Shown piece by piece: positions 21,784-45,110 of a stretch of DNA of 64,000 nt (position 1 is its first letter; each line of letters opens with the position of its first letter). Source of the stretch: Lutibacter sp. (lineage in GTDB: Bacteria; Bacteroidota; Bacteroidia; Flavobacteriales; Flavobacteriaceae); the NCBI RefSeq assembly GCF_030692605.1, contig NZ_JAUYUD010000017.1:1-64000 (forward strand). Reading direction: 5' to 3'. Below the pieces are notes generated by a model that made no database searches, was not told where the DNA came from, and worked only from the letters and a program-made list of their open reading frames with translations. Position numbers and translations under genes: made by a program.

Positions 21784-21785
21784 GG

Positions 21786-23390: not shown

Positions 23391-23437
23391 TCATTTCTTA
23401 AAACTTACTTCTTAAAGCTCAAAATTCACAACTCAAA

Positions 23438-24208: not shown

Positions 24209-24283
24209 GTTGAATATCCTTATTAATATTGCAGAAAGTGATTAAATTTTACAAACAACCAATTAATAATTAATTAGAAATAA

Positions 24284-24634
24284 ATGAAAACAGTTTTAAG
24301 AATGTTATTAACAGCAATTGCAGTTGTTATAATCGCAAAATATTTACCAGGTGTAGAGGTAACCAATTTCACAAATGCTATGTTTGTAGCAATTGTATTG
24401 GGCTTTTTAAGAATAACAGTACAACCCATTCTTGTAATTTTAACATTGCCTGCAACTATTTTAACACTGGGACTATTTTTGCTGGTAATAAATGCAGTAA
24501 TTATAATGTTAGCAGGTTATTTTGTAACTGGTTTTAGTGTTTCTGGATTTTGGACAGCATTACTGTTCAGTATATTATTATCAATGTTTCAATCCATATT
24601 ATTTTCTTTTTTGAAAGAAAAAGAACAAAAATAG
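24284..24634 (+). CDS. Small four-TM membrane protein, phage holin family 4 (DUF360)
   Basis: 116 residues with four hydrophobic segments (about residues 5-22, 28-45, 54-78 and 88-108). It shows the family pattern IAKYLPGVEV near the N-terminus and TLPATILTLGLFLLVINA in the middle. The family is named for a weak relation to mycobacteriophage holins, but members are ordinary chromosomal proteins of unknown function; no phage genes are nearby. Inner membrane location is expected. It is followed by the tig promoter 26 bp after its stop. Confidence 0.82.
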   Translation: MKTVLRMLLTAIAVVIIAKYLPGVEVTNFTNAMFVAIVLGFLRITVQPILVILTLPATILTLGLFLLVINAVIIMLAGYFVTGFSVSGFWTALLFSILLSMFQSILFSFLKEKEQK

Positions 24635-24659
24635 TTGAAATTGAGTGTGTTAAATATTG

Positions 24660-24687
24660 TTGAAATACATAAAAAGTAGTACTTTTG
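24660..24687 (+). promoter_or_regulatory. tig promoter (TTG-N17-TACTTTTG)
   Basis: A TTG at 24660-24662 and TACTTTTG at 24680-24687, separated by exactly 17 bases, match the Bacteroidota housekeeping sigma consensus. The tig ATG is 38 bases downstream. Confidence 0.75.
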
Positions 24688-24725
24688 CACCCAATTTTTA
24701 ATGATTATAGTAAAAAAAGTATAAG

Positions 24726-26071: not shown

Positions 26072-26120
26072 AAAAACGTCTTGAAGAATTTCTTTAAGGC
26101 GTTTTTTTATGTGGTTTTAT
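26072..26120. terminator. tig terminator; left copy of the island-flanking direct repeat
   Basis: Hairpin AAACGTCTTGAAGA / TCTTTAAGGCGTTT (two G-U pairs in RNA) followed by a T-run. The 49 bases match 42939-42987 at 46 positions. The last 31 bases (26090-26120) are identical and extend 10-12 bases past the T-run, so the likeness is not just shared terminator shape. Confidence 0.85.
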
Positions 26121-26287
26121 CGAAATCTTAACAAAATAAACTCCCAAGAATTAAATTCAATTGTGCACAATAAAAATGGAAACAAAAAAAACTGTATTTT
26201 AACCGCGATCTAAATTGGGTTCATTTTAATAGTAGGATTTTAAACAAGAAATCAATCTAAATACGTAACTAATTAATCAATGGCATC

Positions 26288-27040
26288 ATGTCTTTACAAA
26301 TTGAAATCAACAAACTAACGGCAATCATAGTTGATGATGAACTTCACGGCAGGGAAAATCTTAAATTGATTATTAAAAATTACTGTCCGGAGATTGAAGT
26401 TAAGGGAAGTGCTGATTCGGTTGTTTCGGCAATAGCTTTGGTAAAAAATCATTCGCCCGACGTTGTTTTTCTAGATATTAATATGCCGGTACTTGATGGA
26501 TTTGACTTTCTTAACGAATTTGAAGATCGAAAATTTATGGTGGTATTTGTGAGTGCTCATGATGAATTTGGAATCAATGCGGTAAAAGTTGGTGCAGCAG
26601 ATTATCTCTTAAAACCAATAAATATCAAAGAACTCAAACAGTGCGTTAAAAAACTGTTGTGTATAAATGGTAAAAAAAACAGTGCCAAACCTGTTTTAGA
26701 AAACAATAAACTGATTATTTCTGCTTCCCGTGGATTTAACATTCTCAATATCGACGATATTTTGCGTCTGGAAGCTGATGGTTGTTATACCACAATTCTC
26801 ACTAAGGACAAAAAAAACTCCGTAATATCGCGCACCTTAAAAGATTTCGAAGAATCATTGCCAAAAGAATATTTTTTTCGGATTCACAAATCCCATCTTA
26901 TTAACTTGAAATATATCAAGGACTATTCGAACTTTAGCGGAAACTTTGTTACGATGACCGACGGCAGTAAAGTTGAAATATCTCGCCGAAAAACACCAGA
27001 ATTTATCCAGCGGGTAAAAACATTTCTAAATACCGTTTAG
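26288..27040 (+). CDS. LytTR-type response regulator
   Basis: 250 residues. The N-terminal receiver domain (~10-128) has the acidic pair VDDE (~16-19), the phospho-acceptor Asp in VVFLDINMP (~residue 62), the conserved Ser in VFVSAHDE and Lys in LLKPI. The C-terminal LytTR DNA-binding domain (~148-245) shows ILRLEADGCYTTI, LPKEYFFRIHKSHLINL and SRRKTPEF. LytTR proteins bind tandem direct repeats about two helical turns apart, and exactly such arrays occur at 30058-30109 and 31121-31172. The partner kinase starts two bases after the stop. First gene of the island; no full -33/-7 pair is visible in the 167 bases before it. Confidence 0.93.
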   Translation: MSLQIEINKLTAIIVDDELHGRENLKLIIKNYCPEIEVKGSADSVVSAIALVKNHSPDVVFLDINMPVLDGFDFLNEFEDRKFMVVFVSAHDEFGINAVKVGAADYLLKPINIKELKQCVKKLLCINGKKNSAKPVLENNKLIISASRGFNILNIDDILRLEADGCYTTILTKDKKNSVISRTLKDFEESLPKEYFFRIHKSHLINLKYIKDYSNFSGNFVTMTDGSKVEISRRKTPEFIQRVKTFLNTV

Positions 27041-27042
27041 AG

Positions 27043-30042
27043 ATGCTTAAAAAAAATATAATTTTTGCTGTATTTTTTCTTTTTTGTTTCTCAAATATTC
27101 ATTCGCAAACCCCATCTTATTATCATTATACTTCATCCGACGGATTGGCTTCTTCCACCGTTTACGACATTATTCAAGATAAAGACGGATTTATGTGGTT
27201 TGCCACCGCAAATGGAATAAGTAAGTTTGACGGCAATCACTTTGCCACATTTCGAACCAAAGATGGTTTAAATTCCAACTCAATTATTTCTCTTTTGGAA
27301 GGAAGAAAAGGCGAATTATACATCGGTAATTTTGAAAAGGGAATTAATGTTTTAAAAAATGGTAAAATTGAAAATTATTGCAGTGTAATTGACGGCAAAA
27401 GTTTGGTGATTTCTTACTTAATATTTGACACTTCAAAAAAAAATGAACAGAAAATTATTGCATATAATGGTTGGGGTGATATTAATTTAATCAGTGAAAC
27501 CGCATCGGGTAAACTGAGTACAAAAATTATTAAGGCCTTTCCCGTTTACATCAATAAATTAGAAAAACTGGCAAATAGTGATTTAATGGCTTTAACTACA
27601 ACGGGTTTGTATGATTTTAAAGTTGAATCACTTTCAAAATTGAACATCAAAGGTTTGCCCGAAACTTCAGTTTTTTGTCTCGCCAACGGCAATGACGGGA
27701 GTTACTATATCGGCACAAAAGGAACAATTTACCAATTAAAAAACAAGGCTATAATTGGCACATATAAAATAGATTTAGCGAGCAACAATGAGGTTACCGC
27801 TATTTTAAGCGATAAAAATAATAATATTTGGTTTTCAAACAGAAATTCGGGTTTTTATATGATTCCAAACGGTTCAAACAAAATAATAGATATTGGAAGT
27901 AAATTAGACCTACAAAATACGTTGGTAAATAAATATTTTGAAGATAAGGAAGGTAATATTTGGATCAGTACTTTTGGAAAAGGCGTTTATTGCATTAACA
28001 ATCTTTACCTAAAAAGTTATAATGAAAATGACGGATTGCACAATAATAACGTTTATGCTATTGCTAAAGTAAGTTCGGGAAAATTATTATTGGGTACTTT
28101 TAATGGCGTAAGTATTTTAGAAAACGGAAAATTCGACCAGATCAAAAATAAAAATGATAAAACTTTATCGGAATATATTTATAACATTAAAAATTTAAAT
28201 AATGAATTTTATGTTTGTGGGTCAGTTGTAAAAAACGACACATCCACTATTTCTTATAAAGACATAAAATTGCATTTGTTTGATGGACTTTCATTTTGCA
28301 AATTAAGCAATGGATTGTACTTGTTTGGAGGAAGAACAAATTACATAAGAGTGCAAAATAAGTTTAATGATGATCAAAACCAAGCATCACAAGTCTTTGT
28401 TTTTGGTGAAGATCGCAGTGCAAACCGAATCAATCAAATTTTTGAGGATTCAGAAAAAACACTTTGGATTGGCACCGGACATGGTTTGTGCAAAGCATCA
28501 GTTTTGCTTGATAAAACTGGGAAACTAACTTTAAAGAAAACCTTTTTTAAATCCAATTCAATTTTAAATTCGAAAATAAATGCCATTATTCAAGATAATG
28601 ACCACAACATTTGGGTTGCAGGCGAAAAAGGGATTGTTCGTTATAATCTAAAAAACAATTCCATTACAGACTATGAAAATATTGGGGATCAGGATTTATC
28701 ATCGTCTACTTCAGTTGTTTCCGACAAAAAAAACAGAATTTGGGTTGGAAATATGAAGGGTCTTTATTTGGTTGATGGCAACACAATTAAATATTTTAAT
28801 AAGCAAACCGGCCTTCCGTCGGATGAAGTTTATTCACTCTTTTACGATGAGGAAAAAAATCAGTTAGTAATTGGTTCAAGTGCAGGTATTACATTTTTGG
28901 ATATTGATTTATTTGACAAGGATATTTCTCCAAAGCTCCAAGTGAAAATTATGGGCGTAAAAGCAGGGGATTCAGTTTACACAAATTATAACCATTTGGT
29001 TTTTGGGCCTGAACAACGGAATGTTTCCATTAACTTTAAAGCGCTAAACTTTTCTTCTTCAGGCTCTGTGAGATATCAGTATAGATTAGATGACAGCAAA
29101 TGGAAAGAAACGCACGATGATGTTCTTAATTTTCTTTCCCTAAAAAACGGAAAATACAATCTTCTCATTAGAGCAAAATCCCAAAATGGAAATTGGAGCA
29201 ATCCGGCCCAGATTTCCTTTGAAGTGAAACCTCGTTTTACAGAAACCGTTTGGTTTAAATTTTTGATGTTATTGATTGTTGCACTGGTTTCCAGCTTAAT
29301 GGTGGCTTGGCAAGCCAGAATTCAACAGCGTAAAACACGTAAAAAACTAAAATTGAATCAGAGAATTAACGACCTAAAACATCAAGCTTTGTCGGCCATG
29401 ATGAATCCGCATTTTATTTTTAATTCCCTTAATTCCGTACAATATCTTATCAACAGCAACAGGAATGAAGAAGCCAATGATTATATAGCGATGATGGCTA
29501 AATTGATTCGAAAAAATTTGGAAACCGCCGGAAGCGGATTTATACTTTTATCCGAAGAAGTCAACCGGCTGAAACTTTATTTGAATTTGGAGAAGCTCCG
29601 ATTTCAGGAAAGGTTTTCTTATGAGATTATAATAGGGAATGACATAGATTCAAATGCAATAATGATTCCAAATATGATTCTTCAGCCCTTTGTTGAAAAC
29701 GCACTTTGGCATGGCATTATTAACTCGGGTGTCAAGGGGATGGTGAGCATTTCTTTTTCTTTTGAAAATGTAGAAATTGATGCTGAAATTTGTAAATCGT
29801 TAATGATAAAAGTTACCGACAATGGTATTGGAATTATTGAAGCCAGAAAACATAAAAAAGCGAATCATATTTCAAAAGGCATTGAAATTATTGAAGAACG
29901 TCTCCGGTTGTTGAGCGAAAAAATGGAATTGCCCCAGCCAATTATGATTGACGATTTAAGCAACCAAAATAATAATACACATGGTACCGAAGTTATCATT
30001 TCTCTGCCGCCACCTCTTTATCAAATAATTCAAAAGGGATAA
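27043..30042 (+). CDS. LytS-type histidine kinase with periplasmic propeller sensor
   Basis: 999 residues. Signal peptide to HSQ (~22), then Reg_prop beta-propeller repeats through ~residue 630 (for example DGLASSTVYDIIQDKDGFMW, GNIWISTFGKGVY, KTLWIGTGHGL, NRIWVGNMKGLY), a Y_Y_Y domain (~640-735), one TM helix (~740-762) and a cytoplasmic His_kinase (LytS/YehU family) domain. The H-box reads AMMNPHFIFNSLN with the phospho-His near residue 790; the ATP-binding part has ILQPFVENALWHG and VTDNGIGI. The large periplasmic sensor suggests an extracellular or envelope cue. Propeller sensors of this kind are best known from polysaccharide utilisation hybrids, but there are no SusC/SusD or glycosidase genes here. 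Paired with the LytTR regulator (2-bp gap). Confidence 0.93.
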   Translation: MLKKNIIFAVFFLFCFSNIHSQTPSYYHYTSSDGLASSTVYDIIQDKDGFMWFATANGISKFDGNHFATFRTKDGLNSNSIISLLEGRKGELYIGNFEKGINVLKNGKIENYCSVIDGKSLVISYLIFDTSKKNEQKIIAYNGWGDINLISETASGKLSTKIIKAFPVYINKLEKLANSDLMALTTTGLYDFKVESLSKLNIKGLPETSVFCLANGNDGSYYIGTKGTIYQLKNKAIIGTYKIDLASNNEVTAILSDKNNNIWFSNRNSGFYMIPNGSNKIIDIGSKLDLQNTLVNKYFEDKEGNIWISTFGKGVYCINNLYLKSYNENDGLHNNNVYAIAKVSSGKLLLGTFNGVSILENGKFDQIKNKNDKTLSEYIYNIKNLNNEFYVCGSVVKNDTSTISYKDIKLHLFDGLSFCKLSNGLYLFGGRTNYIRVQNKFNDDQNQASQVFVFGEDRSANRINQIFEDSEKTLWIGTGHGLCKASVLLDKTGKLTLKKTFFKSNSILNSKINAIIQDNDHNIWVAGEKGIVRYNLKNNSITDYENIGDQDLSSSTSVVSDKKNRIWVGNMKGLYLVDGNTIKYFNKQTGLPSDEVYSLFYDEEKNQLVIGSSAGITFLDIDLFDKDISPKLQVKIMGVKAGDSVYTNYNHLVFGPEQRNVSINFKALNFSSSGSVRYQYRLDDSKWKETHDDVLNFLSLKNGKYNLLIRAKSQNGNWSNPAQISFEVKPRFTETVWFKFLMLLIVALVSSLMVAWQARIQQRKTRKKLKLNQRINDLKHQALSAMMNPHFIFNSLNSVQYLINSNRNEEANDYIAMMAKLIRKNLETAGSGFILLSEEVNRLKLYLNLEKLRFQERFSYEIIIGNDIDSNAIMIPNMILQPFVENALWHGIINSGVKGMVSISFSFENVEIDAEICKSLMIKVTDNGIGIIEARKHKKANHISKGIEIIEERLRLLSEKMELPQPIMIDDLSNQNNNTHGTEVIISLPPPLYQIIQKG

Positions 30043-30057
30043 AATTTCTTTCACACT

Positions 30058-30109
30058 TACCGTTAAATTACCAAAACCTACCGTTCGTTTATTGGGTGCT
30101 ACCGCAAAA
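30058..30109 (+). promoter_or_regulatory. Triple LytTR operator upstream of the DUF3592 gene
   Basis: Three direct repeats ACCGTTAAA (30059), ACCGTTCGT (30080) and ACCGCAAAA (30101) start exactly 21 bp apart. The central copy fits the published LytTR site pattern [TA][AC][CA]GTTN[AG][TG] at every position, and 9-bp sites with 12-bp gaps are the known LytTR layout. A near-identical array precedes the 83-residue gene at 31234. Confidence 0.8.
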
Positions 30110-30119
30110 TTATTAACTG

Positions 30120-30149
30120 TTGCAATGATTGATATTATAGTTAAATTTG
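30120..30149 (+). promoter_or_regulatory. Promoter of the DUF3592 gene (TTG-N19-TAAATTTG)
   Basis: TTG at 30120-30122 and TAAATTTG at 30142-30149, 19-bp spacer. The last operator repeat ends 10-11 bases upstream of the TTG, a usual position for an activator. The ATG is at 30166. Confidence 0.7.
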
Positions 30150-30165
30150 AATAAAAGCTATCAAA

Positions 30166-31065
30166 ATGAATTGGATTGGCTGGCTATTAAGCCTTATCAT
30201 TATGCTATTGTTGTTTGTTGCGGGAGCCATTTTGTGGAATCCCTTGCGCTTATTAATTTCAGGAAAAAAAGTTGAAGGAGTTGTAATTGGATTGGCCAAA
30301 TCACCTGGATCAGCTGGGCAGGATTCACTAAAAGCGCCAATTTTTGAATTTACAACCTTAAATGGAGAAAAAACAAAAGTGAGCGGTCGGGATTTTTCAA
30401 ATTCTACCTCCGTATATATTGGTAAAACTGTTCCCGTGGCTTATGAGCAATCAAATCCAAAAAATGCCCAAATAATGTTATTCAAGGAATTTCCAATAGG
30501 AATTGTGGCTACTTTATTTGGTTTTGCAGTTTTCATTTTATTGATTTGGATTTCTGGCATTCTCATTTCCGGGGATCCAAGATTGGATGATCCGTTCCAT
30601 CTTTTACCTATGTTAATTGCCAATTTACAATTAAATCCATATCGTTTCCCCGTTTATTTTTTGTTGTCAATAGTGATTCCTGTTAGTGGCACTGGTACTT
30701 ATTTGCTTACCGCAAGTGCGCTTGATTTACGTGCCAATGGAATTAAAACTGTTGGAGAAGTATTGAGATTTGAAAGAATAATTTCAAAAACAAATGATGG
30801 CAGAGCTACGAGTGGCATATTTCCTATGGTTACTTATAAAGACGCTTCTGGCAATTCTCATATTATTAAAAGATCAATGGCAAAACCGCTAACCCGCTTA
30901 AAACCCGGTGATTTGGTTTCAGTAATCTACCCAGCTGAACATCCTGATCAAGGCGTTGTAAATACGTGGGACGAGTTTTGGCCACCTCCTATCTTTTTTG
31001 GCTTTGTGATGATTGCTTTTCTATGGCTGCTTTATTTAATGCTGACTGGGAAAATTCAGCTCTAA
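30166..31065 (+). CDS. DUF3592 membrane protein
   Basis: 299 residues with about four TM helices (roughly residues 5-25, 113-133, 158-180 and 272-292). Two soluble DUF3592-like beta modules lie between them: residues ~33-107 (GKKVEGVVIGLAK, VPVAYEQSNPKNAQIM) and ~198-262 (VGEVLRFERI, DLVSVIYPAEHPDQGVV). DUF3592 proteins are inner-membrane proteins of unknown role, some fused to OB-like folds. Here the gene is transcribed from its own LytTR-type promoter, which suggests that it works with, or tunes, the neighbouring envelope operon. No enzymatic motif seen. Confidence 0.8.
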   Translation: MNWIGWLLSLIIMLLLFVAGAILWNPLRLLISGKKVEGVVIGLAKSPGSAGQDSLKAPIFEFTTLNGEKTKVSGRDFSNSTSVYIGKTVPVAYEQSNPKNAQIMLFKEFPIGIVATLFGFAVFILLIWISGILISGDPRLDDPFHLLPMLIANLQLNPYRFPVYFLLSIVIPVSGTGTYLLTASALDLRANGIKTVGEVLRFERIISKTNDGRATSGIFPMVTYKDASGNSHIIKRSMAKPLTRLKPGDLVSVIYPAEHPDQGVVNTWDEFWPPPIFFGFVMIAFLWLLYLMLTGKIQL

Positions 31066-31120
31066 TTTATTGAATATTAGTAATAGAATCGCATTTTTTT
31101 ATTTTTAATTGTCACATTTT

Positions 31121-31172
31121 TACCGTTAAATTAGAAATACCTACCGTTAGTTTATTAATACCTGCCGTACGC
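31121..31172 (+). promoter_or_regulatory. Triple LytTR operator upstream of the large envelope operon
   Basis: Repeats ACCGTTAAA (31122), ACCGTTAGT (31143) and GCCGTACGC (31164) at exact 21-bp steps. The central copy again fits the LytTR pattern at all constrained positions. The surrounding ~100 bp is related to 30050-30160, so the two regulatory regions probably arose by duplication. Confidence 0.8.
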
Positions 31173-31182
31173 TTGTTAGCTA

Positions 31183-31213
31183 TTGCGATAACCGATTCTT
31201 GTATTTAGATTTG
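31183..31213 (+). promoter_or_regulatory. Promoter of the envelope operon (TTG-N20-TAGATTTG)
   Basis: TTG at 31183-31185 and TAGATTTG at 31206-31213 with a 20-bp spacer, in the same position relative to the operator repeats as at 30120-30149. The ATG of the first gene is at 31234. Confidence 0.7.
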
Positions 31214-31233
31214 ATACAAAAGCCAAAGCTCCC

Positions 31234-31485
31234 ATGTGGAATTTTCTAAAAAATTTGAAGCATTTATTTACAAGGAAGCAATCTGTTTCCACACCGCTTT
31301 TAATTATTAAAAAAGGGGCTGATAATGCTAATGTGAAAGAATACAACTCAATTGAAGAAGCCATTGCCGATATAGAAAACGACCCGAACGTTCCCGCGGA
31401 AAAAATAGAAAAGCTAAAATCGTCCATCAGAATGTTAAAGGACAAAACTTCCATAAAAATCAGAAATGGTGAAATCATAAAATAA
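31234..31485 (+). CDS. Small protein of unknown function (83 aa)
   Basis: 83 residues, not recognised. No signal peptide or TM helix. The N-terminus is basic (MWNFLKNLKHLFTRK). The middle contains a short helix with acidic residues (SIEEAIADIENDPNVP), then a Lys-rich helix (AEKIEKLKSSIRMLKD). It is the first gene after the second LytTR promoter and lies 12 bp before the 1628-residue gene, so it is probably translated from the same mRNA. Real-gene evidence is position, promoter and a coding-like codon pattern. It may be a cytoplasmic accessory or regulator of the operon (inference). Confidence 0.65.
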   Translation: MWNFLKNLKHLFTRKQSVSTPLLIIKKGADNANVKEYNSIEEAIADIENDPNVPAEKIEKLKSSIRMLKDKTSIKIRNGEIIK

Positions 31486-31497
31486 AACAGAACAATT

Positions 31498-34400
31498 ATG
31501 AAGAAATATCTTGCACTTCTATTATTGGCAATTTCTTTTCAAGGTTTTGCGCAATCCAATCTTATTACCGGTATCAACATTTCACTGCCTGCCAATCCGG
31601 ATGCAAATATTGCCGAATGGTCTAAATCAATGCCGCCGCTTATGATTTCTGCACAAACCAGAATGGAACAAGGAAAAGTGTCGCCGATGGTTCAGGAAAG
31701 CAGTATTTTGGTTTCCATAAAAGGCAATGGTGTCGTTTGTGGTCATTATTCGATTGACAATGCTCCGGCAAGTAATTTTAATTCCCCTGCAAAAGTATGG
31801 TCGGGCGAAACAGCGCTTAACTTATTGGGCGAGGCTTGTGTTTTAAAACCGGGTATTTATGAATTTTGTGTAAAGTTCTATGGCAATGGCGCTGCTGGCC
31901 AGGTTTTGATTGGTGAAGCTTGTAAGTCATTCACCATAAAAGAAACTGAGCGTAAATCTTATCAGCCACCTCAGGCTTTAGCGCCCGTAAATGGACTTTC
32001 CTATACAACTGGTGACTTCGCGCAACCACAGTTGTTTCGTTGGACGCCCGTAATACCAAAACCACAAGAGCCTGTAACGTATCGATTAAAAGTTTGGCAA
32101 ATGATGCAAGGACAAACAAGTACACAAGCCATGCAAGTTAATCAGCCTATTATTACCAAAGATGTTGAAAATATGACACAAATTGTCATAAATAATATTT
32201 TAGATGATCCTTGCAAGCCACCATACCTCTGCGATTTTGTTTGGAATGTGCAAGCGTTGAACAGGGAAGGAAACCCAATTGGGGATAATAAAGGAATGAG
32301 CAGCCCTTTTCAGTTTGCAGTAAATAAAGCTGCTCCAAATGTTAATAAATCGCAGCCTGTTGTTGAAGAGGAGGTAGTGGTTCCAACAGGAAGCCTTGCG
32401 GCTAACGACACCATTTATGCCGGTTACAATGGCGAATTTGCCATTATTACAACACAAGTTAGCGGCACCAATAAATTTTCAGGAAAAGGGACCGCCTTCA
32501 TAAATTGGCTAAAGGCGCGAGTGAGCGTTAAATTTGACAGTATTACTGTTGATGCCAATAAAAAATTGCTTACAGGAAAAATTTCAGCGGAAATTGATGA
32601 TACTGCACCTGTTTATCCGCAAGATTGGGCTTTAGAAATTGCGGCAAACAATCCTTGGTTAAATAATATGGTTACAAGTCATGTAACTTGGGTTGAAAGC
32701 AAAATCAATCAAACAATTCCCTATAATAATTTAACAGAAGTAACAACTCCGGTGAAATTGCCTTTGGGACTTAATTTTCCAAACGGAGATCAATTGGCGA
32801 TTACTGAAATGGTTTTTAGAAATAACAAATCTGAATTCAATATGGTAACTTCTAAAACTACGCCTCAAGACTGGGGAAATCCTGTTCAATTGGTTGGTTT
32901 TATCGCTAAAAATATTGAATTTCATCCCAGCAATATTAAAATGCCACCCAATAGAATAGAACTTGTTGAAGATGTCACCATTATTGCAAATCCTAAAATT
33001 AATTTCACCTTTAAAAAACCCACAAATTCAAATACGGGCTGTTTTGTTGAATGGGGCGAAAATGGATTTTCGCAATTCGGAATCGAAATACATTCTGAGT
33101 TTACGAGAGATTGGTTATTGCCTTCTCCTGATGACGGAATCTCAAAAACCAAGGCAAAACTATTTGCTTTAGGCACTGCATGGAATGATTTGGTTTTAAC
33201 AGGTACTTTGGAAAAGTCTGAAATAGTTTCCGCACAAGGAATGACGGTTTTGGCAGATAGTTTGTCTTATGATATGTCGGATGTTTTAAATCCGCCAAGC
33301 ATCACTTTTCCGCAAAATTATGATGGAGAAACCTCTAACTTATTCAGGGGTTTTTATATGAAAGAACTGGTGGTGGAAATGCCGGCAACTTGGCAAACCC
33401 ATTCTGGCGGCAAACCTCAAATTTCAGTGCAAAATATGATTATTGACAATACCGGTATCACGCTATTTGCGGAAGCCACCAATGTTGTTCAGTTTCCCAA
33501 CGCAAACGTTGCCGATTTGGTAGCAAGCATTGATACGGTTCATGTGGAAATTGAATCGAGTTCACTTGTTGAAGCAAGTGTTAAAGGCCGAATTGGATTG
33601 CCGGTAAGCAAAGCAGATTCTATCCAAAATCCTTTAAAATACATAGCGCTATTCAATAACGCGCAATTGCCTTCCCAAACAAGCTATTTTCAATTAACCA
33701 TTGAACCGACGGGTCCAATTTATGCAAATTTGTTAAAAGGCGTCATGACGCTTGCCCAAACCTCAAATATTGTTGCCTATGTTGATAAAAATAAAAAAAC
33801 ATTTAATACAATGCTCAATGGAAATTTTGTTTGGAACAACGTGAAATTAGGGCCGGTGAAAAATGTAAATATGAACTTAGGGTTTCAAGGGATTGCCATG
33901 AATTATGACTCAAGTTTGGCAAGCAATAAATTTACTTTCAATGCGGGCGCATGGTCATTTGCGAGCCCTCAAAAATTCTTGGCAAATTTTCCGGTTACCA
34001 TAGACAATATCGGATTTAAGCAATTGACAACTACAGGCAATCAGTTACTTCATGGAAAATTAAATTTCGACGTAATTTTTAATTTGTCGACAGATGTGGG
34101 AGGGCAATCTAAATTGGCCGTTGAATTGGCAATTGAAGACAATCAAAATGCTTCAGGATTGGGAAAATTTAAACCAAAATATATTGGAACCAGTATTTCT
34201 GACATCAGTGTTTATGCTAATTTACCGGCCGTTTCTATTGATGGAACTATTCAATTCAGAAATGACGATCCCGTTTTTGGAAATGGTTTCAAAGGAACGC
34301 TTCAAGCAACTTTTAAAGCCCCAAAAGTGAGTATTTCAGCCTTGGCTGAATTTGGAAACACCAGTTATCTTCATACCTCAACCTACAGATATTGGCGTGT

Positions 34401-36384: not shown

Positions 36385-36434
36385 TGAAACGAGCATTACA
36401 AATTTTGATATACAAAGGAATAATTAATGGCGAA

Positions 36435-36454
36435 CCTGCCAGCCGGCAGGCAGG
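36435..36454. repeat. GC-rich REP-like palindrome
   Basis: CCTGCCAGCCGGCAGGCAGG, 20 bases palindromic at 18 positions around GCCGGC, in a 108-bp spacer of otherwise AT-rich sequence. It resembles interspersed REP-type palindromes (family not identified). In RNA it would form a stable hairpin within the operon mRNA. Confidence 0.6.
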
Positions 36455-36492
36455 CAGCCATCTGTTACCGCTAAAAAATAAAATTTAAACAG

Positions 36493-38607
36493 ATGAAAAA
36501 ATCTATAAATAAATATTCGATCCTATCAATGGTGCTATTTATGTTTTTTTCAAGCATAAATGCACAAGAAAGCAATGAGGAACAGCCAACAAGCATTATC
36601 AATATGGTTGCGCGTTACTTACCAGATAACAATGCGGTAGAAATGCGATTTTTTCCCGACAAGAAATCTATTTTATACTCTGGCATAAAAAATGGCTTTG
36701 TGGTAGAAAGAGCAGAAATTTCTGAAGGAATAGCTGTTGAAGCAGATTTAAAATATATCAAAATTGCTGAAGTTTTTCCCTTTGATGAAGCGCAATGGAC
36801 TGCCGCTTTTTCAAAAGGAAACCAAGAAACAAAGCACAGCTTAAACCTTGCAAAAGACTTTTTTGACAATATAGAAAAACAAACTGGAGGAAAATTCAAT
36901 TTTGATGAGGGTATCAAAGAAATGAAAGAACAAAAAAGCAAGGAAGATTTTGAATACTTAATTTTTGTGATGAATGCCATTAAAGATAAGGATGTAGCCG
37001 AAGCCATTGGATTATCATATACAGATAAAAGCGTCCAAAAGGATAAAAATTACTTGTATCGGATTAAATTAAGCAAAGAACCAAAATCTGCTTACAAAGT
37101 GGTTGGTTTGCCTTTTAATATTGAAACTTCCGTAAATAAAAAGCAAGAAGCACGAAAAATATACACGGTAACAGGCGATAAAGAACTGTCTTTCCTTTGG
37201 GAAGAAAACGATATGGTTTCCGGCGCTTTGGTTGAACGAAAAAACAACAAAACCGGAAAATATGAACCGTTGAATGAAACGCCTGTATACACGCTGGGTG
37301 AAACATCAAATCGCAATGGCTATAAAGATGAAAATTTAACAAATTACCAATGGTATGAATACCGTTTTTATGGGCACAATCCTTTTGGGGAAAAAATACT
37401 TTTTGGTTCGGCCAAAGCAATGCCTAAAGATCTTACGCCTCCAAAAAAACCGCAGCTTATTAAAGCCAAACATGAAAAATTTGATGAGGTATTGATTGAG
37501 TGGAATATTACAGATCCAATTGATAGTGATTTAAAAGGATTTATAGTGGCTCGCGGTGAAACCAATGATGGAAATTTTCAAATTCTGCATCAAAATTTAT
37601 TGTCAAAAAGCACAAGAAGTTTTACCGATAAAACTTTTAATAGTGTAAAAAGCAATTATTATGTGATTCAGGCAATTGACACCAGCGGAAATATAAGTTC
37701 TACAACACCTGCTTTTGTAACAATTACAGATTCAATTCCGCCCGTAAAACCTAAATTTATTTCAGGAAAAATAGATTCTTTGGGCATTGTTACCATAAAC
37801 ATTGAGTTAAACAAAGAAATAGATTTAATGGGCTACAGATTGTACAAGTCCAACAGCGATGAACATGAATTTTCTTTGATACGTGAAGGTTTTAGTGAAA
37901 ACGATTCAATAGTTAAGCCAGTTCAAATAATTTTTAAGGATACGGTTACTTTAAACTCACTAACGCCTTATATTTATTATAAAATTATTGCGCTCGATTA
38001 TAATTTTAACCAATCAGAATCTTCCGAAATATTAAAAGTGAAACGTCCAGATAAAATTCCACCAACAACACCGGTATTCAAAAATGTAATTGTTAAACAA
38101 AATGAAATAGAACTGCATTTTGCATTAAGCGAAAGTGAAGATGTTGTGGAACAATATCTCTATCGAAAATTAAAAGCAGAAGCGCCTTGGGAATTGCTCA
38201 GCAAATTGGACAATAAGTTAACATCCTATACCGATAAAAAGTTAAAGCAGGCTACCGTTTATTTTTATTCTTTGCGCGCAAAAGACGACAGCAATTTATT
38301 TTCTGAATATGCAAAACCTGTTGTTGGAAAACCATTTGACAATGGCGTACGGCCACCTATAAAAAACCTTGTCATTAAAAAGGACGATAAGGATATTTCA
38401 CTTTCTTGGGAATATGAATTCTTGAATGACAATACCTATTTTGTAATTTATAAAGCAGATAAAAAGGGCAATTTAATTCAGTATAAAAACACCACCAAAC
38501 TTCTTTTTAAAGAACCTGTTGGCAAAGAAACAAACAGTTATGCGGTTAAAGTATTCACAAAAGATGGCGGCCAGTCAAAAATTAGCAATACGGTAATCAT
38601 TAGATAA
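36493..38607 (+). CDS. Secreted protein with FN3-like domains
   Basis: 704 residues, signal peptide ending INAQ. Residues ~25-300 are an N-terminal domain I do not recognise, mixing helices (SLNLAKDFFDNIEKQ) and strands. From about residue 310, four fibronectin type III-like units follow, each opening with a proline pair: TPPKKPQLIKA, SIPPVKPKFISG, KIPPTTPVFKNV and VRPPIKNLVIKK. Each contains the core W or Tyr and a YYVIQAIDTSGN-type G-strand. FN3 arrays in secreted bacterial proteins usually serve as spacers or binding modules. No C-terminal sorting domain. It follows the 1628-residue gene and belongs to the same set; partner contact is inferred. Confidence 0.8.
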   Translation: MKKSINKYSILSMVLFMFFSSINAQESNEEQPTSIINMVARYLPDNNAVEMRFFPDKKSILYSGIKNGFVVERAEISEGIAVEADLKYIKIAEVFPFDEAQWTAAFSKGNQETKHSLNLAKDFFDNIEKQTGGKFNFDEGIKEMKEQKSKEDFEYLIFVMNAIKDKDVAEAIGLSYTDKSVQKDKNYLYRIKLSKEPKSAYKVVGLPFNIETSVNKKQEARKIYTVTGDKELSFLWEENDMVSGALVERKNNKTGKYEPLNETPVYTLGETSNRNGYKDENLTNYQWYEYRFYGHNPFGEKILFGSAKAMPKDLTPPKKPQLIKAKHEKFDEVLIEWNITDPIDSDLKGFIVARGETNDGNFQILHQNLLSKSTRSFTDKTFNSVKSNYYVIQAIDTSGNISSTTPAFVTITDSIPPVKPKFISGKIDSLGIVTINIELNKEIDLMGYRLYKSNSDEHEFSLIREGFSENDSIVKPVQIIFKDTVTLNSLTPYIYYKIIALDYNFNQSESSEILKVKRPDKIPPTTPVFKNVIVKQNEIELHFALSESEDVVEQYLYRKLKAEAPWELLSKLDNKLTSYTDKKLKQATVYFYSLRAKDDSNLFSEYAKPVVGKPFDNGVRPPIKNLVIKKDDKDISLSWEYEFLNDNTYFVIYKADKKGNLIQYKNTTKLLFKEPVGKETNSYAVKVFTKDGGQSKISNTVIIR

Positions 38608-38735
38608 CAGAAGACGGTTGGCGTGAAAATTTCAATTTAAAAATGTTATTTATGTTTTTAATGAATTTAAAAAAATATGCAAAATGAAGGATTCCTGTTT
38701 CATCATTAAGCAACATAATTTTTAATCAAAACCAA

Positions 38736-40469
38736 ATGAAGCAACTCAAACTAACGGCAGTAATTATTATTTTGTTGCTTGCGTTTAAAGCAAACGCCCA
38801 AGAAAAGAAATATGCTTTTTCCATAAAAGGCGATATGGGAATTTGGTATGAGGGTTATGGGCTCGATAAAAATCCAAGTCCGGCCGTACCCGATTTTTAT
38901 TCCGCCAGAAAGCCATGGAATTTAGTGCGATATTCCTTCAATCCAACTTTTTCAATTGGCAAATGGGAAATTCCCATGAATTTTAATTTCAGCCCTATGA
39001 TAACCAATTTCATCACACCGGCTGGAACGAAACAAAATGTGTGGCAATTTTTAACAAATCCGGCTAATAATTTTGGTTTGCGCCCTAAAATTGGAACCAC
39101 AGAATTTCTGTTGGGTACACAAACCCTGAAATACAGTGATTTAAGTACAGGAGATTTGGGTGTTTTTGGTTACGGCGTAAATTTATCGCCGGGAAAATTC
39201 AGAATAAAATTATTTAAAGGCGTATCACAAAGTCCTGTCAATTACGAAGCGCCAACGCTTCCTAATCCTGCTGGCGTTATTGGTGCTTATCAACGCAACC
39301 AATGGATGGCACAAATTGGTCTTGAAAAAGAAGGAAGCTATTTTACCGGATTCAATTTTGTAAAATCTATAGATAAACGAAATTCCGTAACGTCGCCGCC
39401 ATTAACGCCTATTGATCCGCAGGAAAACATGGTCGTTACTTTTTTAACTACGGCCAATTCAGAAAACGGATGGAAATATCATATTGAACTCGGACAAAGT
39501 TTTCATACGCTTAATTTAAATACGCCGTTATCTTCTGTGCCGGTGGAAGATTTTAAGCCTTTTATCAACGCCCATACTTCCTCTTCTATGGACCATGCAG
39601 TTTTATTGAGCCTTGCCAAAAAAGGACAAGATTGGGAAATTGGCACAAAATTTAAATATTTTGGTGCCGGCTATTTTACCGCGGGATATCCTTTTATGAA
39701 CAATGACCTGATTGATTATTTAATTGATGCGCGGTTTAACGCATGGAAAAAGAAAGTGAATGTCGTTGCCAGTGTCGGCGAGCGTTTTGGAAATTTAAGC
39801 CTTACTTCTGGTCCGGACAAAACCAGACAAATTATTGCCAATGTGAATGTATTTACGCAATTTAGCGACAAACTTAGTTTGAATATGAGTTTTAATAATT
39901 TTGGTTATGATGCACCTGATTTATCAGGATATAAAAGCGTAAGCAATGAACTCAGTGTAAATCCTTCCTATACTTGGAGCAACACTAAAATGAGCCACTT
40001 GATAAGCGCAACTTACACACAAAGCACGTATGATGAAACCATTGTTTTTGTTACCACACATAACAATACACAAACAGCATTGCTTCTTTATGTTCCAACA
40101 TTTTTTGAAAAAAAAATAAGTCCGGATTTTAGTTTAATGTGGTTCAAAAATACAGCACCTGCAATTGACCTTTCTTTGTTTACCGCTTCAAGCGGATTGA
40201 AATGGAAGGTGAACCAAAAATTTAACTTAAAAGGTCAAGTGCAATACAATTTAACCACGATGAAACCTTTTACCGCCAATAAAAATTTATTGGCAACTGC
40301 GGGCTATGAGTGGGAAATTTATAAAAAATTGTCTTGGCAATTTTCGTTGACGGCCAATGTTTTCAAATTTGGAACAGAATTGCCCGGAAACTCTTTAATT
40401 CCAATTTACTCAGGCAATCCACAGTATTTTGAGACGACTATGCGGACAGGTTTGCGTTATAAATTTTAA
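38736..40469 (+). CDS. Outer-membrane beta-barrel protein (577 aa)
   Basis: 577 residues. Signal peptide ends KANAQ. The mature protein shows alternating amphipathic strands with aromatic ends throughout (YSFNPTFSIGKWEIPMNFNF, FGYGVNLSPGKFRIKLF, LNMSFNNFGYDAP) and finishes with RTGLRYKF, a terminal Phe typical of BamA-inserted barrels. I estimate more than 20 strands from length, so it is a large barrel. No plug, SusC or T9SS sorting domain was seen. It is 24 bp before the 295-residue gene and is the best candidate for a pore or anchor in this system. Family not identified. Confidence 0.75.
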   Translation: MKQLKLTAVIIILLLAFKANAQEKKYAFSIKGDMGIWYEGYGLDKNPSPAVPDFYSARKPWNLVRYSFNPTFSIGKWEIPMNFNFSPMITNFITPAGTKQNVWQFLTNPANNFGLRPKIGTTEFLLGTQTLKYSDLSTGDLGVFGYGVNLSPGKFRIKLFKGVSQSPVNYEAPTLPNPAGVIGAYQRNQWMAQIGLEKEGSYFTGFNFVKSIDKRNSVTSPPLTPIDPQENMVVTFLTTANSENGWKYHIELGQSFHTLNLNTPLSSVPVEDFKPFINAHTSSSMDHAVLLSLAKKGQDWEIGTKFKYFGAGYFTAGYPFMNNDLIDYLIDARFNAWKKKVNVVASVGERFGNLSLTSGPDKTRQIIANVNVFTQFSDKLSLNMSFNNFGYDAPDLSGYKSVSNELSVNPSYTWSNTKMSHLISATYTQSTYDETIVFVTTHNNTQTALLLYVPTFFEKKISPDFSLMWFKNTAPAIDLSLFTASSGLKWKVNQKFNLKGQVQYNLTTMKPFTANKNLLATAGYEWEIYKKLSWQFSLTANVFKFGTELPGNSLIPIYSGNPQYFETTMRTGLRYKF

Positions 40470-40493
40470 AAAACTAACGAATATTCAACTGAA

Positions 40494-41381
40494 ATGAAAA
40501 AATATAATTTAATAACAGCCCTCGGATTTTTTCTGATTTTTCAGATGGCCCAGTCGCAAATTACCGTAAACTTGGCGTTAAACAGCAGGCCGCAACCTTG
40601 GTTGTCGCAATGGGTAAATCCGATAAACGGACAAATGATTATCACCTATATGAAAGGACCTGTGCAAGGCGAGGCACAGGTTAAACTCAGAACAACTTTA
40701 TTGGATGAAAGCGGAAGTGTTGTTGGCGCCTCAAATATAAATGCATCTCGTGTTTATACTTTAAGAGAAGGCGTAAACCTATATACCATGGCCGATGCTT
40801 TGCAATTGCAAAATTTGGTGTTGTCGGGAAAAGTGCAAAATACGCTGCAACGCACGGGGCGATTGGCCGCTGGTCAATATCAGTTAAAAGTTGAAGTGAT
40901 GAATGTTTCTGGCGAGGTGGTTTTTGCGCGTCAAACCCATTCGTTTTTTATCACTTCTTACCAATTGCCTAAGTTAATGGTTCCGGCTGATGGTGCTGAA
41001 TTGGACGCACTTGTTGCCCAAAGTTTAATTACTTTTCGCTGGACTGGATTGGTGCCAAATACTGCGGAACTTCCCACTTACCGGGTACAGGTTTTTGAAA
41101 TTCTGCCCGGACAAACGCCAATGCAGGCATTTCGTGGAAACTTTCCCATTTTAGATGAACCCGCTTTGCGTGGCACAACACAATATATTTGGAGAACCAG
41201 TCTGCCGATGTTAGACGACACCGCCAACCAAAAATTTATCTGGACGGTACAAACACTCGATATGGAAGGACACCCAATTCCAACCAATGATATGAATATT
41301 CAGGGAAGAAGTGAACCCGCCGTTTTCACCATCATAAACCAAATGGGCGCCGGCAAACAAGATAAAACGGACGAAGATTAA
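40494..41381 (+). CDS. TANFOR-like secreted protein related to the giant protein's N-terminus
   Basis: 295 residues, signal peptide ending AQSQ. N-terminal domain (~20-155) with NPINGQMIITYMKGP and GRLAAGQYQLKVEVMN; second domain (~160-285) starting LPKLMVPADGAEL and continuing FRWTGLVPN, TYRVQVFEILPGQTPMQAF and QYIWRTSLPML. Both domains are recognisably similar, in order, to residues ~20-270 of the 1628-residue protein, which suggests duplication inside the cluster or a shared binding function. The C-terminus is acidic (QDKTDED). It sits between the barrel and OmpA-like genes with gaps of 24 and 10 bp, so tight co-translation. Confidence 0.75.
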   Translation: MKKYNLITALGFFLIFQMAQSQITVNLALNSRPQPWLSQWVNPINGQMIITYMKGPVQGEAQVKLRTTLLDESGSVVGASNINASRVYTLREGVNLYTMADALQLQNLVLSGKVQNTLQRTGRLAAGQYQLKVEVMNVSGEVVFARQTHSFFITSYQLPKLMVPADGAELDALVAQSLITFRWTGLVPNTAELPTYRVQVFEILPGQTPMQAFRGNFPILDEPALRGTTQYIWRTSLPMLDDTANQKFIWTVQTLDMEGHPIPTNDMNIQGRSEPAVFTIINQMGAGKQDKTDED

Positions 41382-41391
41382 ATAAAAGCGC

Positions 41392-42912
41392 ATGAAAAAA
41401 ATTATCAGCATCATCGTTTTGGGAATTTTAGCACTTCAACTAACTGCCCAAGTATCGGAAGAAAGAAAGCCTTCAACTTTGGCGTTTCATGTTTTTTATA
41501 ACGATTTTAATACCGCGCAGCAAATCAAAATAAGCTCTTTAAATAATGTGCTTAAAAATCATCTTTGGAGCAAAATTGGAGCTATGCAAACAGGATTTGG
41601 AATTAATTACTTAAAGGGAATTCGCAATAAAATTGATTTTGTCGCCACGCTTGATGGCAGTTGGACAGATTATCTTTATGACGACGGAACATCTTACGGA
41701 AGCAATCAATTTTTATTGGACGCCAATGCTGCACTGAATTTTAAAATGTTGACCGATCGGCATACGCTTGTGCCATATATTTCAAGTGGCGTTGGGGTTT
41801 CGTTATATCAGGGCAAAACGGGTTTTTATGTTCCCGTTGGCGCCGGATTGCAATTCAATGTATTTGATGAAGCTTTTATTTTTACCAATATTCAGTACCG
41901 TTATGCGTTGACTTCCGCTGTCAATGATCATTTTTATTATACAATTGGCATCGCTATAAGCATCGGTAAAAATAAAGTAAAACCAGCGGAAATAGTTGAA
42001 CCAATAATCAAAGAAATATCGAACAAGAATATGGTGGTTTCTGTTTATGACGAAGCTACAGGCTTGCCTTTAGCCAATGTGGAAGTTACGATTGGCGGAG
42101 CAGACAATCAAAAACGAAATGCGTTTACCGATGCCGACGGAAAAGCAATTTTTTCTTCAATTGCGCCTTCAGATTATAGCGTTTCGGGTTTGTTAAATCA
42201 TATCAATTCTTCAACCCAAAATATTGAAAAATCAGCTTTTGAGACGGAAGAAAATCAAATTAATATCAGTTTAACGCACAATGATCCGAAGTTTACATTG
42301 AAAGGAGTGGCAATTAATAAGACTCAAAATATTCCCGAAGGCAATGTGGTTATCAAAATCACCAACGATACAAAACAGACGATGGTTTCCGAGCAAAGCC
42401 ATTCAGAAAATGGTGTTTTTCAAACCCAACTGGAAGCTGAAAGCGATTTTACGCTTGTTGGAAAAAAAGCCAATTATATCTCTAACATTGTAAAAGTAAG
42501 CACTAAAGGTTTAAACAGAAGCGCAACGCTTTTTGTCAATTTAGAATTGGCCATTGAAGAAGCAAAAGTTGGACAAAGCATTGTTTTGAACAATATTTAT
42601 TTTGAAGTTGGCAAAGCAACTGTTAATACTGCTTTTTCAACAGATTTGGATAAATTAATACAATTTCTTAAAGACAATACCGAAACAAAGCTTGAGATAC
42701 AAGGACATTCAGACAATACAGGAAGTTTGAACCTTAATAACAAACTAAGTCAAGCTCGCGCAAACAGTATTGTGGATTATTTGGTAAAGCAAGGAATTGA
42801 CAGTCTCCGACTTTCAGCAAAAGGTTTTGGGCCATCGTTGCCAATAGCCGACAATACAACGGCGGATGGCAGAGCCAAAAACCGACGTGTGGTTATTAAA
42901 GTGATGCAATAA
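41392..42912 (+). CDS. OmpA-family peptidoglycan-binding outer-membrane protein
   Basis: 506 residues. Signal peptide ends LTAQ. Residues ~25-195 look like a small eight-strand barrel (FGINYLKGIRNKIDF, FIFTNIQYRYALTS). Residues ~205-390 hold two carboxypeptidase-regulatory-like beta domains (SVYDEATGLPLANVEVTIGG; KGVAINKTQNIPEGNVVIKI). Residues ~395-506 form the OmpA C-terminal domain with IYFEVGKATV, LEIQGHSDNTG, LSQARANSIVDYL and DGRAKNRRVVI; the Asp and Arg that grip diaminopimelate are present. It can tie the system to the cell wall. It is the last gene of the island, and the right-hand repeat/terminator follows 26 bp later. Confidence 0.88.
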   Translation: MKKIISIIVLGILALQLTAQVSEERKPSTLAFHVFYNDFNTAQQIKISSLNNVLKNHLWSKIGAMQTGFGINYLKGIRNKIDFVATLDGSWTDYLYDDGTSYGSNQFLLDANAALNFKMLTDRHTLVPYISSGVGVSLYQGKTGFYVPVGAGLQFNVFDEAFIFTNIQYRYALTSAVNDHFYYTIGIAISIGKNKVKPAEIVEPIIKEISNKNMVVSVYDEATGLPLANVEVTIGGADNQKRNAFTDADGKAIFSSIAPSDYSVSGLLNHINSSTQNIEKSAFETEENQINISLTHNDPKFTLKGVAINKTQNIPEGNVVIKITNDTKQTMVSEQSHSENGVFQTQLEAESDFTLVGKKANYISNIVKVSTKGLNRSATLFVNLELAIEEAKVGQSIVLNNIYFEVGKATVNTAFSTDLDKLIQFLKDNTETKLEIQGHSDNTGSLNLNNKLSQARANSIVDYLVKQGIDSLRLSAKGFGPSLPIADNTTADGRAKNRRVVIKVMQ

Positions 42913-42938
42913 AGTTGGATTATACGTTTTATAAATCA

Positions 42939-42987
42939 AAAAACGCCTTAAAGAAATTCTTTAAGGCGTTTTTTTATGTGGTTTTAT
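42939..42987. terminator. Bidirectional terminator; right copy of the island-flanking repeat
   Basis: Perfect inverted repeat AACGCCTTAAAGA / TCTTTAAGGCGTT with A- and T-runs on the two sides. It serves the OmpA-like gene and the convergent DEAD-box gene. It matches 26072-26120 at 46 of 49 positions; 42957-42987 is identical to 26090-26120. Confidence 0.88.
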
Positions 42988-44331: not shown

Positions 44332-44347
44332 TAAAAAGTATTTTTTG

Positions 44348-44377
44348 CAAATGTAATACTTAATTAATTAAAACAAA
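44348..44377 (-). promoter_or_regulatory. DEAD-box gene promoter (TTTG-N18-TACATTTG)
   Basis: On the minus strand, TTTG (44377-44374) lies 18 bases before TACATTTG (44355-44348). Both elements match the Bacteroidota consensus. The start codon is 16 bases further on. Confidence 0.7.
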
Positions 44378-44499
44378 GAGTAGTAGAATAGTGTGAAAAA
44401 TAAGACGAAATAAATAAATAAAATTATTATTTAGAAGGAATGTAGGTTGGTATGTGTTAATATGAGTGTTTTAAAATTAGGAATGGTAGCGCATAAGTC

Positions 44500-44535
44500 A
44501 AAAAAAAGCTCAAAGATTTTATATCTATGAGCTTT
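44500..44535 (-). terminator. Terminator of the 168-residue gene
   Basis: On the minus strand, AAAGCTCA...TTGAGCTTT stem followed by a T-run (A-run 44500-44507 on the plus strand), 20 bases after the stop codon. Confidence 0.7.
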
Positions 44536-44554
44536 ACCCAACTAAAACTAAATT

Positions 44555-45061: not shown

Positions 45062-45101
45062 GGTATAACTGTTAATTTTTTGATAATCATTTTTGACACA
45101 T

Positions 45102-45109: not shown

Positions 45110-45110
45110 A

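What the first reader, a model, noticed from the sequence alone, without database searches (positions are those of the whole stretch)
26121..42987. LytTR-controlled nine-gene envelope system of unknown function
Seen in sequence: a LytTR regulator, a propeller-type histidine kinase, a DUF3592 membrane protein, a small protein, then five secreted or outer-membrane proteins (1628 aa beta-rich, 704 aa FN3-like, 577 aa barrel, 295 aa, 506 aa OmpA-like), all on one strand with short gaps. Known families cover the regulator, the sensor and the OmpA domain only. There are no SusC/D, glycosidase, transposon or T9SS sorting genes that would place it in a known system. Inference: the barrel and OmpA-like protein anchor the system, the giant and TANFOR-like proteins are surface or periplasmic parts, and the kinase senses an envelope or external cue.
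Basis: partly seen in the sequence, partly recalled or inferred. Interest (0 to 1): 0.88.

Follow-up and report, generated by a model that had tools for sequence, protein, structure and literature searches.

The report
Switchable outer-membrane system from TANFOR-toxin kin
A Lutibacter-type bacterium carries an inserted, switch-controlled set of genes for a large outer-membrane apparatus whose three core parts recur across the Bacteroidota and, in Flavobacterium relatives, sit beside known toxin genes, so it may be the missing machinery of that toxin class, here in a version without a toxin.

Summary
The nine genes are real, on one strand, ending in a terminator. They form a 16.9-kb island inserted at the tig terminator: 49-bp direct repeats (46/49) flank it, and three of ten related genomes show the uninterrupted site. 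The nine-gene set is not conserved as such. What is conserved across Bacteroidota is a triad: wide outer-membrane barrel, giant beta-protein, FN3 protein. The giant's N-terminus and the 295-aa protein share a TANFOR-like domain. In ten of ten sampled Flavobacteriaceae genomes with the split form, the triad lies with a TANFOR-like protein; eleven such proteins have hypervariable C-termini (one a colicin/pyocin-type DNase). TANFOR polymorphic toxins were described in 2020; barrel and giant core are not mentioned in the parts I read. The window's giant has a conserved C-terminus and no immunity gene, so it is not itself such a toxin. LytTR control is supported: triple repeats of 21-bp period precede the small gene and DUF3592, with no other exact match in the held genome. 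The regulatory cassette (LytTR, kinase, operator, 83-aa protein) evolves separately from the structural genes. Most likely: an inducible surface-display or export apparatus; function inferred. New variant of a known kind.

The parts
26072..26120 (.). left flanking direct repeat = terminator of tig (trigger factor)
   Evidence: 46 of 49 identical to 42939-42987
26288..27040 (+). LytTR response regulator
   Evidence: Response_reg E 6.7e-22, LytTR E 3e-21
27043..30042 (+). propeller-type sensor histidine kinase with signal peptide
   Evidence: Reg_prop E 1e-39, His_kinase E 6.7e-20
30058..30106 (+). LytTR operator copy 0 (21-bp-period repeats) ahead of DUF3592
30166..31065 (+). DUF3592 membrane protein, lineage-specific passenger under its own operator
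   Evidence: DUF3592 E 2.3e-7; no relative labelled in the 46 loci
31121..31172 (+). LytTR operator copy 1 (three repeats, 21-bp period) ahead of the small-giant operon
31183..31213 (+). putative Bacteroidota-type promoter (TTG ... TAGATTTG); consensus recalled
   Evidence: sequence read; consensus not tested by a tool
31234..31485 (+). 83-aa protein without signal peptide, travels with the regulatory cassette
   Evidence: 12 of 316 genomes, own included; 74% identical in L063 where the giant is 31%
31498..36384 (+). giant secreted protein: TANFOR-like N-terminus (1-~290), conserved beta core (~295-1304), C-terminal domain (~1361-1628)
36493..38607 (+). FN3-type secreted protein, core triad member
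   Evidence: family in 43 of 46 giant loci; alignment A2
38736..40469 (+). outer-membrane beta-barrel of about 25-26 strands, core triad member
   Evidence: AF2 pLDDT 85.2, pTM 0.73; VIA Z 20.1 to MtrB 6r2q_B
40494..41381 (+). stand-alone TANFOR-like protein, paralogue of the giant's N-terminus
   Evidence: E 2.3e-14, 31% identity; such a domain is fused to the barrel in 4 of 46 loci
41392..42912 (+). OmpA-domain protein, probable peptidoglycan anchor
   Evidence: OmpA E 1.7e-21 at 403-498
42939..42987 (.). right flanking direct repeat; its stem 42938-42974 is the operon's terminator-like site

Best explanation
A horizontally acquired, two-component-switched outer-membrane display or export apparatus. 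Shown by computation: the island sits between duplicated copies of the tig terminator; triple 21-bp-period repeats of LytTR-operator type lie ahead of the small-giant operon and ahead of DUF3592; barrel, giant and FN3 protein are a conserved triad; the same families lie with TANFOR-like, variable-ended proteins in Flavobacteriaceae. Inferred: the propeller kinase senses an external cue; phosphorylated LytTR switches on the operon; Sec exports the secreted proteins; the wide barrel inserts in the outer membrane and holds or passes the giant, whose TANFOR-like N-terminus (or the separate 295-aa protein) docks at the barrel; the FN3 protein extends or caps the assembly; the OmpA protein ties it to peptidoglycan. 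In Flavobacteriaceae the TANFOR part is a separate protein with a variable, toxin-type end; in the window it is fused to the core and carries no toxin, so the device most likely works as a surface contact or adhesion apparatus, or exports a cargo encoded elsewhere.
For: Triad: fn704 family in 43 of 46 and barrel in 38 of 46 loci chosen by a giant hit, usually barrel-giant-FN3 with short gaps. From the partners' side: of 74 fn704 places typed in, 56 have a barrel and 50 a giant or TANFOR-like place within 16 kb, the nearest always on the same strand. Toxin link: in 10 of 10 Flavobacteriaceae genomes with the split giant core, barrel, FN3 and a TANFOR-like protein lie within about 25 kb; among 11 such TANFOR-like proteins the N-terminus aligns in 110 of 110 ordered pairs and the last 200 residues in 2 of 110; one ends in a colicin/pyocin DNase domain (E 3.9e-41). 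Docking: TANFOR-like domain fused to the barrel in 4 of 46 loci. Regulation: the operator pattern has 6 exact matches in 15 genomes, all at this locus type; the pattern was written from these sites, so the informative part is that there is none elsewhere; a looser pattern, applied afterwards, finds the element near the 83-aa gene in 3 of 9 further loci. Island: 49-bp flanking repeat, and intact sites with 72-120 bp between tig and helicase in 3 of 10 genomes.
Against: No experiment. Export, display and docking are inferred from folds, fusions and linkage. The barrel family also occurs apart: of 42 strong barrels 12 had neither partner; 5 of these 12 do have a TANFOR-like neighbour by HMM (L113, L116, L207, L211, L213), 7 do not (L204, L205, L206, L208, L209, L210, L212). 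TIGR02542 does not hit the window's proteins nor the Flavobacteriaceae proteins of L084, L085, L089, L199, L201, and no place in 395 genomes passes its cut-off, so the TANFOR homology rests on profile A6, built from window-type N-termini. That N-terminus aligns by BLAST in only 92 of 156 pairs of window-type giants. The giant-core model has pTM 0.47 and its structural matches superpose badly. Most of the variable C-termini scanned have no recognised toxin domain. A related LytTR is in 10 and a related kinase in 13 of 46 loci only.
Confidence: 0.55

Rival explanations
1. The giant is itself a TANFOR polymorphic toxin with an unrecognised C-terminal toxin domain.
For: TANFOR-like N-terminus, Sec signal and large size fit the class (PMC7073777).
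Against: Its last 200 residues align in 139 of 156 ordered pairs of 13 window-type giants (picked from the nearer relatives), against 2 of 110 for TANFOR-like effectors; no toxin family at E<=0.05 in 25 giants scanned, window included; no immunity-like gene downstream, only FN3, barrel, TANFOR-like and OmpA genes, a terminator and a DEAD-box helicase on the other strand.
Confidence: 0.07
2. A lipid- or LPS-handling envelope system: the giant core is an amphipathic beta groove or belt (LptD, AsmA, ApoB-like) working with the barrel.
For: Foldseek's best rows for the core are LptD chains (E down to 1.9e-7) and ApoB100; a weak AsmA family match (E 0.061 in the window, 0.0031 in one relative).
Against: LptD rows have TM 0.09-0.16 and rmsd 21-34 A; VIA rows have rmsd 9-15 A; signal peptide and Ig/FN3-type ends suit the surface better; linkage to toxin-type proteins is unexplained.
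Confidence: 0.15
3. A passive surface adhesin or coat complex with no export role; linkage to toxins in Flavobacteriaceae is secondary.
For: FN3, TANFOR-like and OmpA modules are adhesion or anchor types; no separate cargo was recognised in the window's genome (A6 finds only the giant and the 295-aa protein).
Against: 10 of 10 linkage with TANFOR-like proteins in Flavobacteriaceae and the barrel fusions suggest a working relation.
Confidence: 0.2
4. An extracellular electron conduit: the barrel is an MtrB-like sheath.
For: MtrB is the top fold match of the barrel (Z 20.1, 452 aligned, rmsd 4.9; E 7.4e-10, TM 0.49).
Against: No CXXCH haem motif in any of the nine proteins; likeness to MtrB may only mean a barrel of that width, and porins and ushers follow closely.
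Confidence: 0.02

Closest known systems
TANFOR polymorphic toxin loci of Bacteroidetes (Jana, Salomon and Bosis 2020, PMC7073777; TIGR02542)
   Same: TANFOR-like N-terminal domain, Sec-type signal, FN3 neighbour (that paper reports FN3/COG3401 enrichment beside TANFOR genes); in Flavobacteriaceae the same barrel, giant-core and FN3 families lie in the cluster.
   Different: No toxin end or immunity gene seen in the window, no SprB or T9SS CTD match among the nine proteins; TIGR02542 does not hit; TANFOR-like domain fused to the giant core; LytTR switch, OmpA protein and tig-site insertion.
Type IX secretion substrates and their partners
   Same: The host genome has SprA; a Flavobacteriaceae cluster carries a CTD protein (L199, E 2.3e-11).
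   Different: None of the window's nine proteins has a recognised T9SS sorting domain.
LytTR / propeller-kinase two-component systems
   Same: Domain make-up and 9-bp repeats with 12-bp spacers, as quoted in PMC2766830 (passages read).
   Different: Three repeats instead of two, a companion 83-aa gene, and a history separate from the structural genes.
MtrB and other wide outer-membrane barrels (FimD/PapC ushers)
   Same: Barrel fold and approximate strand number.
   Different: No PDB sequence match below E 0.1, no cytochrome motif, no recognised pilin or chaperone among the nine proteins.

Membership tests
TANFOR polymorphic toxin | TIGR02542 match at the N-terminus | tested here: not met
   No match at E<=1 in the window's giant or 295-aa protein; 4 of 25 giants match at E<=0.05. 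Remote homology: profile A6 matches 9 of 9 proteins examined at TIGR02542 places (of 15 places).
TANFOR polymorphic toxin | variable C-terminal toxin domain | tested here: not met
TANFOR polymorphic toxin | immunity gene next downstream | tested here: not met
   Downstream genes are FN3, barrel, TANFOR-like and OmpA proteins, then a helicase on the other strand
T9SS substrate | C-terminal sorting domain (TIGR04183 type) | tested here: not met
   NCBIfam scan of the nine proteins, E<=1
LytTR two-component system | receiver plus LytTR regulator next to a His_kinase sensor | tested here: met
LytTR two-component system | direct-repeat operator (9-bp repeats, 12-bp spacer) upstream of target | tested here: met
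   spacing as quoted in PMC2766830; binding itself not tested
Outer-membrane beta-barrel | signal peptide, antiparallel barrel, terminal aromatic residue | tested here: met
   AF2 model, listed fold matches are outer-membrane barrels, signal peptide by reading and terminal Phe
MtrB family | partner decahaem cytochrome | tested here: not met
   No CXXCH in the nine proteins
CHU_0125 / PorE OmpA families | score above the family cut-off | tested here: not met
   123.8 of 620 and 101.6 of 600 bits for the 506-aa protein
LptD / AsmA lipid-transfer families | shared fold of the giant core | tested here: inconclusive
   Foldseek E 1.9e-7 but TM about 0.12; LptD is at rank 48 of the VIA rows

The most novel reading that the evidence does not exclude
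Barrel, giant core and FN3 protein form an undescribed outer-membrane export or display pathway of the Bacteroidota that recognises TANFOR-type domains and delivers TANFOR toxins; the window holds a toxin-free, LytTR-inducible version spread as a mosaic island.
Probability: 0.3. Interest if true: 0.85.

Novelty: new variant of a known kind. Interest (0 to 1): 0.62.

Why it matters
How TANFOR toxins, a class described in 2020, leave the cell was left open by the authors, who hypothesised T9SS (PMC7073777). A recurring set of three envelope genes beside them gives named candidates that can be deleted. The window also shows a dedicated regulator with a readable operator, so the switch and its cue can be studied, and a regulatory cassette that appears to be exchanged between different surface systems.

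Tried and rejected
Giant as toxin: rejected. Mobility on plasmids: one plasmid record with a 22.5%-identity match over half the giant. MtrB electron conduit: no haem motif. Phage origin: PHROGs gave one tail-fibre row for the FN3 protein (E 1.1e-7) and six OmpA-type rows at E<=0.01. PDB sequence search: nothing below E 0.1 for giant or barrel. A broader LytTR regulon: with up to 3 mismatches the pattern is no commoner than its reversed control (46 against 51 places in the own genome), so only exact sites were used. Simple sigma-70 scan: 73 sites against 58.8 (sd 6.5) in shuffles, terminators 11 against 14.3; not used, except for the long stem after ompA. Foldseek and VIA rows for the giant core were not taken as family membership because superpositions are poor.

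Literature for the triad: searches for 'TANFOR domain' (1 paper), 'TANFOR' (3), LytTR with FN3 terms (0), polymorphic toxin with T9SS (3), propeller with LytTR (24, 15 listed) and Flavobacterium with polymorphic toxin terms (30, 10 listed) showed no title or abstract on this triad; only PMC7073777 (parts 1-3 of 6) and passages of PMC2766830 were read. The supplements of PMC7073777 were not read.
Full report
OBSERVATION. The nine ORFs are present as described. Known domains are LytTR response regulator, propeller kinase, DUF3592 and OmpA; the 1628-, 577- and 295-aa proteins have no Pfam row at E<=1, and the giant's only NCBIfam row is AsmA at E 0.061. By reading, the kinase and the five secreted proteins begin with Sec-type signal peptides. 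A 17-pair terminator-like stem follows ompA at 42938-42974.

GENOME AND ISLAND. Nearest named relatives of the locus are Lutibacter and Flavobacteriaceae MAGs. The island lies between tig (trigger factor named by reading; homologues found in 10 of 10 genus relatives) and a DEAD-box helicase on the other strand. A 49-bp sequence containing the tig terminator is repeated at both ends (46 of 49 identical; 26072-26120 and 42939-42987). In L045 and L046 (same genus) tig and helicase also flank the island and each end has its own terminator copy; L047 shows the helicase side only. Of 10 genus relatives examined, 3 have tig followed by one terminator and the helicase after 72, 88 and 120 bp, 4 have the helicase 1.9-2.2 kb away, and in 3 it was not found within the stretch fetched. 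GC is 0.34-0.39 at 30001-42000 against 0.28-0.31 at 12001-26000 and 0.27-0.34 at 44001-64000. The giant is matched in 8 of 60 genomes, own included, 7 of 37 in the genus, so it is accessory. None of the nine genes is an integrase.

REGULATION. Upstream of the small gene lies ACCGTTAAA-N12-ACCGTTAGT-N12-GCCGTACGC at 31122-31172, period 21 bp, and a second copy lies ahead of DUF3592 at 30058-30106. In the window a 21-base unit with up to 3 mismatches has 4 matches, 3 of them here, against 0.40 expected. LytTR regulators are said to bind 9-bp repeats with 12-bp spacers (PMC2766830, passages). A 28-base pattern written from the sites of the window, L045, L046, L048 and L063 has two exact places in the held own genome, both here; in 14 other genomes exact places are one each in G001, G026, G353 and G324, all at the homologous locus; 10 of the 15 genomes have none, among them G029, whose contig starts inside the giant. 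Because the pattern came from these loci, only the absence of other exact sites is independent. Independent recurrence: around the 83-aa gene in other families a looser pattern hits in 3 of 9 loci (L191, L195, L196), and L191 and L195 (family f31) show all three repeats by eye. A Bacteroidota-type promoter (TTG, then TAnnTTTG; consensus recalled) follows in the window.

MOSAIC. Window against L048: giant 91%, FN3 95%, barrel 93%, 295-aa 89%, OmpA 86% identical, but LytTR 75% and kinase 66%. L048 against L063: LytTR 80%, kinase 75%. Window against L063: LytTR 74%, kinase 62%, 83-aa protein 74%, but giant 31% and FN3 34%. So the cassette LytTR-kinase-operator-83-aa protein seems to be exchanged separately from the structural genes; no tree was built. 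The 83-aa protein occurs in 12 of 316 genomes, own included; in 7 of the 9 further loci fetched around such places a LytTR gene (E<=6e-98) and a kinase of this type lie nearby, and in L191 and L193 the next gene encodes a protein whose end reads, by eye, like a T9SS sorting domain.

THE TRIAD. The giant is matched in 64 of 395 genomes of the phylum at E<=0.001, own included; part of these match the N-terminus only. Of 46 loci (40 stretches that I chose around places, and 6; 2 of the 46, L074 and L086, have no core) the FN3 family is in 43, the barrel in 38, a related kinase in 13 and LytTR in 10; order is mostly barrel-giant-FN3. Starting from the partners: 56 of 74 fn704 places have a barrel and 50 of 74 a giant or TANFOR-like place within 16 kb, and 50 of 103 barrel places have a giant; the nearest partner is on the same strand every time (weaker and fragment rows left out). 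Failures: 12 of 42 strong barrels have neither partner in that tally; L113, L116, L207 and L213 show a TANFOR-like neighbour, as does L211 (there the barrel is placed; an opposite ORF hides it in the map), while L204, L205, L206, L208, L209, L210 and L212 show none. Full-length OmpA-protein relatives are in L045-L048 and L074/L203; other loci have an OmpA domain only (L064, L075, L079). The 295-aa protein is the best match of ORFs in L045-L048, L065 and L074; other short TANFOR-like proteins exist (L211, L218).

TANFOR LINK. The giant's N-terminus and the 295-aa protein are paralogues and belong to one profile, A6. TIGR02542 reaches E<=0.001 in 12 of 395 genomes and its cut-off in none; of its 15 places I examined nine, and A6 recognises all nine proteins (L106, L108, L109, L111-L116). 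In L055, L056, L063 and L065 the TANFOR-like domain is fused to the barrel. Ten Flavobacteriaceae genomes (G079, G083, G239, G255, G259, G279, G302, G342, G369, G373) have the giant core without the TANFOR-like part; in 10 of 10 a separate TANFOR-like protein, barrel and FN3 gene lie within about 25 kb. Eleven of these TANFOR-like proteins align at residues 30-330 in 110 of 110 ordered pairs and at the last 200 residues in 2 of 110. Thirteen window-type giants align at 30-330 in 92 of 156 and at the last 200 residues in 139 of 156; nine Flavobacteriaceae giant-core proteins in 72 of 72 for both. One variable end is a colicin/pyocin DNase; reprolysin-like peptidase matches are weak and lie inside two others (E 9.2e-5; 0.0017); the rest of those scanned are unrecognised. 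L199 also holds a 2217-aa T9SS-CTD protein. This fits the polymorphic-toxin class of Jana et al. 2020 (PMC7073777, parts 1-3 of 6 read), which reported FN3 and T9SS-substrate enrichment around TANFOR genes and left the export route as a hypothesis.

STRUCTURE. The barrel model is good (pLDDT 85.2, pTM 0.73) with 25-26 strands; best match MtrB. The giant core is mostly beta, with long strands in its second half (pLDDT 83.7, pTM 0.47); Foldseek ranks LptD first, with TM 0.09-0.16, and VIA lists porins, ApoB and ushers with rmsd 9-15 A. I take this only as an amphipathic-looking beta meander of unknown closure.

VERDICT. The window holds an inducible, horizontally acquired, toxin-free relative of TANFOR loci. 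Anatomy, linkage, insertion and operator sequence are shown by computation; display or export, docking, binding by LytTR and cue sensing are inferred.

Noticed in passing
26072-26120 and 42939-42987: Near-identical terminator copies bracket the island; in L046 the two copies share changes with each other by eye, as if kept alike within a genome.
   Followed up: partly
L190, L191, L192, L193, L195, L196, L197: The same LytTR-kinase-83-aa cassette sits in other families; in L191 and L193 ahead of genes whose protein ends look like T9SS sorting domains.
   Followed up: partly
L106, L109: Strings of small genes after the TANFOR-like protein gene look like spare immunity or toxin cassettes.
   Followed up: no
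L074 and L203: A class-level relative has barrel, 295-aa and OmpA homologues but two shorter TANFOR-like proteins and other large genes instead of the giant core.
   Followed up: no
30058-31065: DUF3592 gene with its own copy of the operator, not labelled in any of the 46 loci: an operator-gene unit that looks added to the regulon.
   Followed up: partly
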